A stretch of 64,000 nt of DNA from Stappia indica (GTDB lineage Bacteria > Pseudomonadota > Alphaproteobacteria > Rhizobiales > Stappiaceae): the NCBI RefSeq assembly GCF_009789575.1, contig NZ_CP046908.1:4431001-4495000 (forward strand). The letters run 5' to 3'. The position numbers and the translations under genes are program-made. Positions 6,001 through 15,000 of the stretch are shown piece by piece (the first letter of the stretch is position 1; every line of letters starts with the position of its first letter). A model generated the notes under the pieces. It did not search any database, had not been told where the DNA came from, and saw only the letters and a program-made list of their open reading frames with translations.

Positions 6001-9000
6001 CGGCGCAGCCTCCGCAGGAGACGGGCGGGGTGCGCCTTGCTGGCGATCAGGACGGCGTGCGCCGGCTGGACCTGACAGGACGCTGGAGCGCCGCGACACG
6101 CCGCGAGCTTGAGCATGCCTTGCGCGAGGCGGGAGAGGACGAGACGCTCCGCGTGGTTGTCGTTCAGGGCGACGAGAGCTGGAGCCCCTCGGGCGCAGCC
6201 GCCGGCAACACGATCACCACCGCGCTGCTCGACTGCCCGTTGCCGGTGGTCGCCGTCCTCGAAGCTCCCGTCGCAGGAGACGGCGCGGCATCAGCGCTGC
6301 TGGCCGATTTCATTGTGCGTGCCGAGGGCGCAACCGTCTCTTCCCTGCCGGTCCTGCCCGATGGGCTGCCCTGGCAGCTCTCGGCGCGACGGATCGAAAG
6401 GGGATTGGAGGCCGTTGCGGCAGGCAGCGTCGAGACCGCCGCGACGGAGCTCGCCGCCTCCATCGCCGGTGCGCCGCGCGAGGCGCTGGTGTTGCTGAAG
6501 GCGCATATGCGCAAGGCCATGCCGCAGCTTGTCGGCGCAGGGCTGGCGGGCGCGCCGGATCGAGGTAAGGACCGCCTGCGGCAGCTCATGCAGGATGTGG
6601 GCACCGCAAGTCTGGTTGCGACCCAGCCGCGCCGGGTGCCGGTGGCGACGTCCGTGATGCAGCTGGAGGCGTTCCCGGACGGCGTCGTGCTGCTGCGCAT
6701 GCTGGAGCGCGCGGGCCGCAACACCTTCACGACCGCCTTCATGGACGGGATCGAGGAGGCCTTTGCCGCCATTGCCGCGATGCCGGAGGCCAAGGTTGTC
6801 GTTCTCACCGGCCATGACGGTTACTTCGCCTGCGGCGGCACGTCTGAGGGCCTCACAGAGCTGCAGGCCGGCGAAGCGCGCTTCACTGACCGGCGGATCT
6901 ACAGCCTGCCGCTGGCCTGTCCGCTACCGGTGATCGCCGCGATGCAGGGGCACGGCATCGGCGCGGGCTGGTCGCTCGGGCTCTATTGCGACGTGGCGAT
7001 CCTCGCGACCGAAGGCCTCTATCACAGCAACTATCTCTGGTACGGCTTCACGCCGGGCGCAGGCGCGACGCTGATCTTCCCGCACCGGCTGGGCGACGAC
7101 CTCGGCCGGGAAGTGCTCTTCAGCGCGCGCGAATATCGCGGCCGGGAGCTGGCCGGCCGGGCGCCGCATCTCGATGTGCGGCCGGCCGCGCGCGTGCTGG
7201 ACGAGGCGCTGGCGCGGGCGCATGCGCTGGCCCGGCAGCCGAAGGCGGACCTCATCGCCGCGAAGGCGGAAGGAGCGGCCGTCATCGCCCGGCATCTCGA
7301 TCAGGTGCTGGAGCGCGAATTCGCCATGCACGAGACCACCTTCATCGGCAGTGACCGCGTCCGCGCCCGCATTGCGGAGAAATTCGGCGAGGTGTCGCCC
7401 GCGCCTAGGCAGCAGCCGGCGCCCCTCTCCGCCGGGCGTGCCGACCCGCGGCCGAGTGTTCGCGAGCGGCTCGCCGCCTCGCTCGCCGAGGACCTGATGA
7501 TCGACGCAGGCGAGATCCGCGACGAGGCCGGTTTCCTGGAACTGGGTCTCGACTCGATCCTCGCCGTCACCTGGATCCGCAAGCTGAACGCGCTGTTCGG
7601 CATCGAGTTGCCGGCGACCGTGGTCTACGCGCATCCGACGGTCGGCGGGCTGGCTGATCACGTCGCAAGGCTCGTCCCGTCGCCGGCGGTTCCGCAGGCT
7701 GTGCCGGAGCCGGCAGCGCCTGTTGTCGACGCAGCGTCGCCCATGGCGAACGGGGCCAACGTGCCTCATGGAGAGATCCGCGAGCGGCTTGTCGCCTCGC
7801 TTGCCGAGGATCTGATGATCGACGCAGGCGAAATCCGCGACGAGGCCGGCTTCCTGGAACTGGGTCTCGACTCGATCCTCGCGGTCACCTGGATCCGCAA
7901 GCTCAACGCGCTGTTCGGCATCGAACTGCCGGCCACCGTGGTCTATGCGCATCCGACCGTCGGTGCGCTCGCGGCCCATGTCGCCGGGCTCGTCCCGGCC
8001 AAAGCTGCTGCGCAGCCCGTCGCCCCGGTCATGGCCCAGATCGCGGCCCCGGCGCCAGCCGCCGTCGCTGTCATAGCACCAGCTGCGAAGGCCGACGAGC
8101 AGCCCGCCGTCGCGATCATCGGCGCGTCCGGCATCTTCCCCAAGGCCGGCGATCTCGATGCCTTCTGGCGCAACATCCGCGAGGGGCGCGACTGCATCGA
8201 GGAGGTGCCGGTCTCCCGCTGGGATGTCGCGCGTTTCTATCACCCCGACCCGGCGCATCCCGGCGCGTCCTACTGCAAGTGGATGGGTGCGCTCGACGGT
8301 GTCGACCAGTTCGATGCCGGCTTCTTCGGCATTACCCCGCGCGAAGCAGAGCTGATGGACCCGCAGCAGCGCCTGTTCCTGCAGGTCGCCTGGCACGCGA
8401 TCGAGGATGCGGCCATCGATCCGCATGCCTTGGGCGGTCGGAATTGCGGGATCTATGTCTCCTCCGGCCCGAGCGGTTACGAAGACCTGATCGAGGAGCG
8501 CAACGCCTACAGCCTGCTCGGCAGTTCCGGCTCGATCCTTGCCGCGCGCATGTCCTACCTGCTCGACCTGCGCGGCCCGAGCCTGTCCATCGACACGGCC
8601 TGCTCCAGCTCGCTGGTGGCGATTGCCGAGGCCTGCGACAGCCTTGTTGCCGGGACCTGCGATATGGCGCTGGCGGGCGGGGCCTGCATTCTCGTCGGCC
8701 CGAAGATGTTCATCGACACGTCCAAGGTCTCGATGCTGTCGAAGGACGGCCGCTGCTTCACCTTCGATGCCCGCGCCAACGGCTTCGTGCCGGGCGAGGG
8801 CGTCGGCGCGGTGCTGCTGAAGCGCCTGGACGATGCCCTGCGCGACGGCGATCCCATCCGCGCCGTCATTCGCGGCTGGGGGACCAATCAGGACGGCCGC
8901 ACCAACGGCATCACTGCGCCCAACCCGCAGGCCCAGACCGCGCTGATGCGCTCGGTGCAGGCCCGCTTCGGCATCGATCCGGCGAGCATCGGCCTCGTCG

Positions 9001-12094: not shown

Positions 12095-15000
12095 CCGACG
12101 ACCGGCGGCCCGAGGATCTGAAGGCGCGCATGGCGCGGCAGCTCGAACAGGAGTTGGTCGAGCGCGCCCGCGCGCGCGCCGCCTCGCGCCGGCCGGAGCC
12201 TGAGGATGCAAGCGGGCCGTCCGCGCCGACAACGCTCGCCGCCCGGCTTGCCGAGGACGTCCACCGGCTGGCATCGCAGGCGCTGCGCATCCCTCAGGAC
12301 AAGCTCGATCCGACGGAAAACCTTGCCAATCTCGGCATCGATTCCATCGCGATCACCGAGGTGATGGCGCGCATCTCGCGCCACTTCGCGATCACCGTCG
12401 CGCCGACGACCTTCTTCGAGGCGAAGCATCTCGACGATCTTGCCGCGATCCTGCTGGCCCGCTACGGCAAGGCGGTAGAGGCCTCCTATGCTGCCCGTGC
12501 GCCAGAGCCGGCGCCGGCCAAGGCAGCTCCGGTGACTGCCCCGGCAAAGCCGCTTCCGCCGACTGGCACCGATGCTGCGGCCGATGTGCCGGAGGCATGG
12601 CTCGCCCGCCACCGCGCCTTTGCGAAGGGGGAGGGGATCGCACCCTCCGGCGAAGCGGCGCGGCCCGCCCGGCAGCCTCTGGCGACCGCGACCGCGACCG
12701 AGGAGCAGGTCCCCATTGCGGTGATCTCGATGGAGGGCCGCTTTCCGCAGAGCCCGGATCTTGAGACCTTCGCCGCGCATCTGGCCGCCGGCGACGACTG
12801 CATCGAGGAAGTGCCGGCGGATCGCTGGGACTGGCGCACTGTGCATGGCGATCCGAAGAAGGGGCCTTTCACCGACGTGAAATACGGCGGCTTCACGCCG
12901 GGGCACGACCTGTTCGACGCGGGTTTCTTCAACATCTCACCGCGCGAAGCCGAGCTGATGGACCCCCAGCACCGGCTGTTCATGGAATGCGTCTGGAGCC
13001 TGGTCGAGAAGGCCGGCCATGCACCCAGCTCGCTTTCCGGGCGCAAGGTCGGGCTGTTCCTGGGCATCAACCTGCTCGACTATACCGACATGGTGAACCG
13101 GGCCGGCATCATGGATGCCCAGCAGCTCACTGGCCTCGGCCACGCCTTCTGCCCCAACCGGCTGTCCTTCCTGCTCGACATTCACGGGCCGAGCTCGGTC
13201 ATCGACACGGCGTGCTCCAGTTCGCTCGTGGCGATCCACCGCGCGATCATGAGCATCCGCCATGAAGGCTGCGAGATGGCGATTGCCGGCGGCTCGAACC
13301 TGATGCTGTCGCCGATGCAGCACATCATGTTCTCGCAAGTCGGGATGATCACCCCCGACGGGCGCTGCAAGACCTTCTCGGCCGCCGCGAACGGCTATGC
13401 CCGCGCCGATGGTGTCGGCGCGGTGCTGCTGAAGCGGCTCGACCTTGCCGAGCGCGACGGCGACCCGATCCTCGGCGTCATCCGCGCGTCCGTCGAACAT
13501 CATGGCGGCGGGGCGACCTCGCTGACCGCGCCGAACCCGAAGGCCCAGGCGCGGCTGGTGGCGGAGGCGCATCGCCTCGCCGGCATCGATCCGCGCAGCG
13601 TCAGCCTGATCGAATGCCACGGCACCGGCACTCCGCTCGGCGATCCGGTCGAGGTGGAGGGGCTGAAGACCGCCTTCGCCGAGCTTTACCGCGAGCATGG
13701 CATGCCCGCGCCGGCCGTGCCGCATATCGGGCTCGGCTCGGTCAAGTCGAACATCGGCCATGCGGAAACCGCGGCCGGTGTTGCCGGGCTGATCAAGGTG
13801 CTGCTCGCCATGCGCGCCGGCACCCTGTTCCGGAGCCTTCATTGCGAGGAGCCGAACCCGCTGCTGGAGCTGGAGGGAAGTCCCTTCTACCTGCTGCAGG
13901 CCGCGCGACACTGGGACCGTCCGGTCGTCGACGGGATCGAGCAACCGCGCCGCGCTGGGCTCAGCTCCTTCGGTGCGGGCGGCGCCAATGTCCACATGGT
14001 GATCGAGGAATATCGCGGGCCGCAGCCTGTGCCGACGCCCCTCTCGTTTCCAATGATCGTGCCGCTTTCCGCCCGCACGCCGGACGCGTTGGCTGAGGCC
14101 GTCCGCCGCCTGCGGCCGCATGTGGCGGGCTCGGATCTCGGTGATCTTGCCTGGACGCTCCAGGTCGGGCGCGATGCGATGCGCGAGCGGATCGCCTTTG
14201 TCGCCCGCGATACCGGGGATCTGCTTCGCCAGATGGATGCCGTGCTGGCGGGGGCGGATGGCGATGCGCTTCGCGGCTCTGTTCCGCGCGGCCGGCGCGC
14301 CGAGGAAATGATACTCGACCCCATCGGCCGCGATCCGCTCGAGGTCGCGCGCGCCTGGGTCGGCGGCGCCAGCGTCGACTGGCAGCGGCTGCATGCGGGC
14401 ACCGCGCGTCGGCGCCTTGCGCTTCCCTCCTATCCGTTCCAGCGCAAGCGCTACTGGCTGCCGCTCGAAGCCGCACCAGTTGCTCCCGCGTCCGGCCTGT
14501 CGCCGCAGCCGTCCGGCGCCGGCACATTCGAGATCGAGCTGACGGGGCACGAGTTCTTCCTCGCCGACCATCGCATCGGCGGCCGCCCGGTCCTGCCCGG
14601 CGTCGCCTATCTGGATCTGGTGCGTGCCGCCGCGGTGAAAGCCGGCCTTGAGCAGCCGCTCCTGCGTCAGGTCGTGTGGATGAGTCCGCTTGCCGTCGAG
14701 AAGCCCGTGCGGGTGCGGATCGTCTTCACGCCGGCCGCCGATGGCGCCCGCCGCGCCGAGGTTCTGAGCGTTGCGTCCGGAGAAGAGCCGCGGCTGCATG
14801 CGCAGATGCTGGTGGCTGACGGTGTGCCTCAGGCCCCGGCCGCTGCCGATCTTGCGGCCCTGAGCCTCGCGCATCCGCGCACGATCCCGGCGGAGCGGGT
14901 CTATGCCGCCTTCGATGCCATGGGCCTTGCCTATGGGCCGGGGCACAGGGCGATCCTGTCGCTTGCCATCGGGCCGGACGCGGACGGCGCGCGCTCCGTG

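What the first reader, a model, noticed from the sequence alone, without database searches (positions are those of the whole stretch)
8107..12480. Split oxygenation module: KS3-dead DH, stand-alone flavin monooxygenase, then ACP on the next protein
The first PKS ends with KS3 and a DH-like domain whose catalytic motifs are broken. It has no carrier. The missing ACP opens the second PKS, and the only gene between them, joined by ATGA overlaps on both sides, is a class B FMO. The genetic layout places the oxidase at one defined step of the line. For OocK in oocydin such an enzyme inserts oxygen into the growing backbone. An ester formed here would be a built-in cleavage point between the two halves of the product.
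Basis: partly seen in the sequence, partly recalled or inferred. Interest (0 to 1): 0.75.

Follow-up and report, generated by a model that had tools for sequence, protein, structure and literature searches.

The report
Known oxygen-inserting step of sesbanimide assembly
A stand-alone oxidase sits between two giant assembly-line proteins and most likely inserts one oxygen atom into a growing sesbanimide-type chain, making an ester; the arrangement is real here but has already been described in print.

Summary
PKS1 ends with a KS and a degenerate DH, without a carrier. A 445-aa class B FMO follows (10757-12094) with ATGA overlaps on both sides; the missing ACP opens PKS2. The neighbouring genes match most of the published sesbanimide (sbn) cluster, and the nearest FMO relatives are in Stappia. 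Two held papers already describe this KS-DH|monooxygenase|ACP-KS split module as a Baeyer-Villiger step in sesbanimide and oocydin. The finding is right but known.
Checks made here: 35 of 36 FMO homologues at 57% identity or more lie between a KS and an ACP-KS; none of 44 at 39% or less does. PKS-linked FMOs (37) form one branch apart from 58 others (SH-aLRT 100). The KS receiving the oxidised chain groups with the equivalent KSs of presumed oocydin and labrenzin lines (100/100).
The inactive DH is the least conserved part. In one Hyphomicrobium MAG it is absent and the FMO is fused to the KS; in two Acidobacteria MAGs the FMO is fused to the ACP protein. Most novel surviving reading: the dead DH is a docking platform for the FMO.

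The parts
6183..7355 (+). tandem ECH domains of the beta-branching module just upstream
   Evidence: domain seeds; Pfam ECH_1 (one stretch)
7473..7982 (+). tandem ACPs of the beta-branching module
   Evidence: two LGLDSI motifs
9888..10736 (+). degenerate dehydratase domain (DH*), HxxxGxxxxP lost; end of PKS1 (stop 10758-10760)
10757..12094 (+). stand-alone class B flavin monooxygenase (SbnP/OocK-type), FxGxxxHxxxY at residues 152-162
12226..12480 (+). ACP opening PKS2, completes the split module
12706..14040 (+). first KS of PKS2; groups with the KS after the FMO in presumed oocydin and labrenzin lines
12091..32412 (+). PKS2 (SbnQ-like PKS-NRPS, 6773 aa)
28384..32343 (+). terminal C (28384-29688), A (29764-30828) and TE (31630-32343) of PKS2; a GGDSL carrier motif between A and TE is read from the sequence

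Best explanation
This is the split oxygen-insertion module of a sesbanimide-type trans-AT PKS in a Stappia-like genome. The sixth KS of PKS1 condenses malonyl carried on the ACP at the start of PKS2, giving a beta-ketoacyl-ACP. The module has no KR and DH* looks inactive, so the beta-ketone persists. The FMO (SbnP) inserts one oxygen between the beta-carbonyl and the gamma carbon, making a malonyl-ester thioester. The first KS of PKS2 accepts it and elongation continues to the terminal NRPS module (arginine in the published relatives; specificity not tested here) and TE. The ester could later be hydrolysed to shorter sesbanimides. Shown by sequence: domain order, motif states, FMO and KS kinship, conservation of the arrangement. 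Inferred: the reaction, its regiochemistry and the later cleavage; also that the beta-branching module upstream supplies an allylic CH2, a favourable migrating group.
For: Anatomy. Neighbour genes match most of the published sbn list (against PMC8262917 passages). 35 of 36 loci at 57% identity or more have a KS before and an ACP then KS after the FMO; 0 of 44 at 39% or less do. FMO tree. KS tree: post-FMO KSs of window, L015, L021, labrenzin, Dickeya and Serratia at 100/100. Full HxxxGxxxxP in 0 of 36 DH* rows (window plus 35 loci, of which L031 has no DH*), against His and Pro in 33 of 33 rows of the active DH of PKS2. Published assignment of the same split module to Baeyer-Villiger ester formation (PMC8262917 passages; PMC9600693 passage).
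Against: No assay or product for this genome. The FMO has FxGxxxHxxxY, not the type I BVMO FxGxxxHxxxW, so sequence alone does not prove Baeyer-Villiger chemistry. The window's DH* keeps the His and Asp at the catalytic columns. L040 has an FMO of 59% (best segment), broken over two frames, with no PKS match in the 4.4 kb downstream. L033/L034 are taken as oocydin clusters from organism and domain order only. Of the published sbn genes, the stand-alone acyl-CoA dehydrogenase (SbnX) was not among the 20 flanking proteins scanned, and the small protein beside the amidotransferase gave no Pfam match, so its ACP (SbnK) is unconfirmed.
Confidence: 0.87

Rival explanations
1. The FMO hydroxylates the tethered chain (for example at the alpha carbon) rather than inserting oxygen into the backbone.
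For: Other trans-AT lines, including oocydin, mupirocin, pederin and labrenzin, are said to use a monooxygenase for hydroxylation (PMC9600693 passage). The motif is FMO-type.
Against: Hydroxylating monooxygenases are said to be generally followed by an inactive KS, whereas the KS after this FMO has intact Cys/His/His motifs. That KS groups with those after the FMO in presumed oocydin and labrenzin. Sesbanimide R carries an ester.
Confidence: 0.06
2. The FMO is a tailoring or self-protection enzyme that merely lies in the operon and acts after release.
For: It is a free-standing protein; its broad family holds many enzymes that act on small molecules.
Against: KS/FMO/ACP-KS order kept in 35 of 36 loci. 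FMO fused to the KS in L031 and to the ACP protein in L029 and L032. PKS-linked FMOs are a separate branch.
Confidence: 0.03
3. The module is defunct and the chain passes unmodified.
For: DH* is degenerate, and absent in one locus.
Against: The FMO is highly constrained: 127 invariant alignment columns among 37 PKS-linked rows, all 37 with the N-terminal GxGxxG and FxGxxxHxxxY. It is better conserved than DH* (median identity x coverage 67 against 34).
Confidence: 0.03

Closest known systems
Sesbanimide (sbn) gene cluster, module 6 split over SbnO/SbnP/SbnQ
   Same: Same gene order, same split module, same missing HxxxGxxxxP, most of the same neighbour genes including the PPTase noted for the S. 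indica cluster
   Different: No difference found in this module. SbnX-like gene and SbnK-like ACP not confirmed here. The product of this genome is not known to me
Oocydin OocK oxygen-insertion module (OocJ/OocK/OocL)
   Same: ECH-ECH-ACP-ACP-KS-DH*-FMO-ACP-KS order in Serratia L034 (in Dickeya L033 the DH seed did not hit, but a region of DH length is there); FMO 57-60% identical; the KS before and the KS after both group with the window's
   Different: ACP only about 35% identical, DH* about 24% or undetected, modules further downstream differ; gene identities inferred, no annotated record seen
Labrenzin (pederin family) PedG-type oxidase with PedH-like PKS
   Same: FMO 60% identical, 4-base overlap with the upstream PKS gene, ACP-KS-DH-KR-ACP-KS downstream, post-FMO KS in the same clade
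   Different: The KS upstream of the FMO is only 44% identical and outside the window's KS clade; no ECH in the 8.3 kb held upstream; the post-KS region was not matched by the DH seeds

Membership tests
trans-AT PKS oxygen-insertion split module (OocK/SbnP type) | KS-DH on one protein without its ACP, ACP at the start of the next PKS | tested here: met
trans-AT PKS oxygen-insertion split module (OocK/SbnP type) | DH lacking HxxxGxxxxP | tested here: met
   the His itself is retained in the window
trans-AT PKS oxygen-insertion split module (OocK/SbnP type) | FMO gene between the two PKS genes, in one clade with known members | tested here: met
   oocydin identity of L033/L034 inferred; labrenzin from contig length 6,167,349, which equals the chromosome length in the start of the abstract of PMC6855096 shown
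trans-AT PKS oxygen-insertion split module (OocK/SbnP type) | conversion of a beta-ketoacyl thioester to a malonyl ester | not testable with these tools
   needs an enzyme assay
sesbanimide gene cluster | amidotransferase, beta-branching genes, P450, FkbM methyltransferase, two AT proteins, SbnO-P-Q order | tested here: met
sesbanimide gene cluster | SbnX acyl-CoA dehydrogenase and the ACP SbnK | tested here: inconclusive
   not seen among the 20 flanking proteins scanned; small protein L004:13758-14117 without Pfam match
sesbanimide gene cluster | sesbanimide product in the strain | not testable with these tools
   needs metabolomics; features matching sesbanimides A and C were reported at low abundance in another Stappia (PMC12997852 passage)
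class B flavin monooxygenase | two dinucleotide-binding motifs plus FxGxxxH (motifs recalled) | tested here: met
   window meets all; of 37 PKS-linked rows 37 have the first, 35 the second, 37 FxGxxxHxxxY
type I Baeyer-Villiger monooxygenase (fingerprint FxGxxxHxxxW, recalled) | Trp at the end of the fingerprint | tested here: not met
   Tyr in 37 of 37 PKS-linked rows, Trp form in 0 of 37

The most novel reading that the evidence does not exclude
The dead DH is not junk but a docking platform that brings the free-standing FMO to the KS. A region of DH length (293-453 aa after the KS match) is present in all 34 loci where the FMO is a separate polypeptide from the KS (matched by BLAST to the window's DH* at E 1e-4 in 32 of the 34). 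It changes fast outside a short conserved core. It is absent in the single locus, L031, where the FMO is covalently fused to the KS and docking would no longer be needed.
Probability: 0.3. Interest if true: 0.45.

Novelty: already known. Interest (0 to 1): 0.22.

Why it matters
It confirms by independent tests that one FMO clade, kept in one fixed place in the line, marks presumed oxygen insertion in trans-AT assembly lines, so the position of an ester can be guessed from DNA. The natural KS-FMO and FMO-ACP fusions, and the locus without DH*, give direct tests of how the oxidase is positioned, which bears on engineering esters into polyketides.

Tried and rejected
Considered and rejected: FMO as an unrelated enzyme (tree); chance neighbourhood; an FMO pseudogene in L095, suggested by a reported TGA, which is simply the natural end of the gene.

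Led nowhere: a search for a second FMO relative in the Dickeya and Serratia genomes at E 1e-15 found only one each. A phylum sample gave 2 of 398 genomes at E 1e-100, one of them the window's own; the other (L120) was not examined for context. A search for further genomes with the L031 fusion found only L031's own (1 of 103), so the fusion rests on one MAG. No structure of DH* or FMO could be predicted. NCBIfam gave no match above a curated cut-off for the FMO among the 25 families shown; the best solved relative by sequence was 8z16, E 5e-58, and a chain called 'polyketide synthase modules-related protein' (8odw) came at 2e-24; neither was followed.

Rows dropped: L040 was left out of the FMO tree because its frame is broken; L071 is the one of the other 59 non-PKS loci offered that is missing from the printed tree (script kept rows over 250 aa). 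That tree is a quick one without bootstrap and its output warns of long branches among the non-PKS rows. The 30-locus medians leave out L007-L009, L033, L034 and L040; L016, also named Stappia but with a 78% FMO, stayed in. The DH* alignment A1 holds the window and 28 of 35 loci (L025, L029-L033, L042 not given). One search stopped on a script error and was redone.

Papers: PMC8262917 (outline with abstract, passages, part 1 of 2 of the reference list); PMC6855096, PMC7930024, PMC11260071, PMC12997852, PMC4552970, PMC9600693, PMC8739492, PMC10574677 (passages only; the start of some abstracts in search listings). PMC6174933 (Meoded 2018), 10.1111/1462-2920.15470 (Kacar 2021) and PMC7586987 (Ueoka 2020) are not held and are cited only through other papers. 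Whether a KS-FMO fusion without DH* is in print was not established: searches listed 3 and 5 papers, of which only PMC8262917 and PMC11260071 were looked into, and not for that question.
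Full report
OBSERVATION. The window is part of a 5.12 Mb single contig. PKS1 enters from upstream and stops at 10760. Its last KS (8109-9452) has intact catalytic motifs and is followed only by a weak DH (31.6 and 33.6 bits) with no carrier. The FMO gene (10757-12094, 445 aa) overlaps both neighbours by ATGA. PKS2 opens with an ACP (12226-12480) and runs ACP-KS-DH-KR-ACP-KS-DH-ACP-KS-DH-ACP-KS-KR-ACP-KS-ACP-C-A-TE by the domain seeds, with a further carrier motif (GGDSL) between A and TE read from the sequence.

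WHAT CLUSTER. Among 20 flanking proteins scanned, those upstream include an acyltransferase, a phosphopantetheinyl transferase, an FkbM methyltransferase, a P450, an HMG-CoA-synthase-like protein, an ACP, a stand-alone KS, an asparagine-synthase-type amidotransferase, two ABC transporters and an acyltransferase fused to a nitronate-monooxygenase-like domain. This matches most of the gene set published for sesbanimide, including the PPTase noted for the Stappia indica cluster (PMC8262917 passages). Not confirmed: the acyl-CoA dehydrogenase SbnX and the ACP SbnK. The three closest FMO relatives, all in Stappia, are 92-96% identical; a further Stappia-named strain has 78%.

ALREADY IN PRINT. PMC8262917 states that module six is split over sbnO and sbnQ, separated by sbnP, a flavin-binding monooxygenase; that such a module with a DH lacking HXXXGXXXXP has been shown to insert oxygen; and that it is likely responsible for the ester of sesbanimide R (passages). 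PMC9600693 gives the general form KS-DH|MOX|ACP-KS for oocydin and sesbanimide (passage). PMC7930024 describes oxygen insertion followed by ester hydrolysis for pederin-type compounds, and oocydin A as a cleaved form of oocydin B (passages).

CONSERVATION. A scan of genome contigs returned 80 loci (of 123 confirmed among 130 matches). Of the 36 with an FMO at 57% identity or more, 35 have a KS directly upstream and an ACP then a KS directly downstream. The exception, L040, has an FMO broken over two frames and other genes, sensor-kinase-like by eye, downstream. Of the 44 at 39% or less, none has this arrangement; L072 has a KS 6.7 kb downstream. Of the 35, two (Dickeya L033, Serratia L034) show a different order downstream, taken as oocydin. 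The other 33 show the window's order as far as DNA is held; 31 of the 33 also have an ECH upstream, the other two (L022, L039) holding only about 2.6 kb there. The glutarimide genes were not looked for in these loci. In the window's family 15 of 87 genomes hold an FMO at 60% or more: 14 in the DH-FMO-ACP-KS setting, and L101 as FMO-ACP-KS, in a contig whose length, 6,167,349, equals that given for the labrenzin producer's chromosome (PMC6855096, start of abstract). Around the 15 further family FMOs fetched (L102-L116, 33-43%, about 1.5 kb flanks) no ACP or KS was found; L107 gave a KR-seed match and L112 an ECH-seed match.

KINSHIP. In a quick maximum-likelihood tree of 95 FMOs, the 37 PKS-linked rows are one side of a branch (SH-aLRT 100, no bootstrap) against 58 others. 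All 37 have FxGxxxHxxxY, none FxGxxxHxxxW. In their alignment 127 columns are invariant, and 48 positions are kept in at least 36 of 37 but in at most 15% of the 58. In a 38-row KS tree (bootstrap/SH-aLRT), the KS after the FMO groups window, L015, L021, labrenzin, Dickeya and Serratia at 100/100. The KS before the FMO groups window, L015, L021, Dickeya and Serratia at 99/96, but not labrenzin, whose KS there is a long branch. By the published KS-substrate correlation (PMC7930024 passages) this suggests one substrate type after the FMO in the three pathways.

THE DEAD DH. Full HxxxGxxxxP is in 0 of 36 DH* rows (window plus 35 loci, L031 having no DH*). The His column is kept in the window and in 15 of 35 loci. 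In the active DH of PKS2, His and Pro are kept in 33 of 33 rows and the strict motif in 28 of 33 (counted from the rows printed). Median identity x coverage to the window over 30 loci (without L007-L009, L033, L034, L040): upstream KS 71, DH* 34 (29 loci), FMO 67, ACP 68, next KS 77, active DH 47, KR 56 (28 loci). So an active DH also changes faster than the FMO, only less so than DH*. In an alignment of the window and 28 loci, DH* keeps a core around RLxxGLFLPELAR and LLWGxP.

GENE FUSIONS. Of the 35 loci, the KS protein and the FMO are separate in 34, with a 4-base overlap in 29 of 34. FMO and ACP protein are separate in 33, with a 4-base overlap in 21 of 33. In L031 the FMO is fused to the KS through a linker and DH* is absent; in L029 and L032 the FMO is fused to the ACP protein (L031 reading; open frame of 6579 aa). 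The fusions keep the order KS-FMO-ACP and are independent evidence that the FMO belongs to this step. The loss of DH* rests on one MAG.

MECHANISM AND LIMITS. The most likely step is Baeyer-Villiger insertion on the beta-ketoacyl-ACP, giving a malonyl ester. Sequence shows place and kinship; reaction and regiochemistry are inferred from published work on relatives. No esterase showed among the 20 flanking proteins scanned, so the route to short sesbanimides stays open.

Noticed in passing
L031 (Hyphomicrobium MAG), FMO at about 9947-11266: FMO fused directly to the preceding KS with no DH domain; an FMO of this kind was found in 1 of 103 genomes of that family, L031's own.
   Followed up: partly
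L029 and L032 (Acidobacteria MAGs): FMO fused to the N terminus of the ACP-KS protein, while a shorter DH* stays on the upstream protein.
   Followed up: partly
L040:172-1495: FMO gene split over two frames, with no PKS match in the 4.4 kb downstream: relic or assembly error.
   Followed up: partly
L119 (labrenzin producer): FMO and the modules downstream resemble the window's PKS2, while the KS upstream is of another clade (44%): a possible swap point at the FMO.
   Followed up: partly
window 26509-27798: Last KS of PKS2 has EAAANG where the others have the HGTG histidine motif, consistent with the non-elongating KS reported for SbnQ.
   Followed up: no
window 29764-30828: The A domain shows normal-looking core motifs read by eye (YTSGSTGTPKG, NAYGPTE, YRTGDL). 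A matching A domain at E 1e-60 was found in 28 of 30 genomes tried, not in those of L023 and the labrenzin producer. This bears on whether Stappia really fails to add arginine; the specificity code was not derived.
   Followed up: partly
window 39721-42867: 1048-aa ORF in which release factor 3 matches only residues 525-1042; fusion or over-long start not resolved.
   Followed up: no
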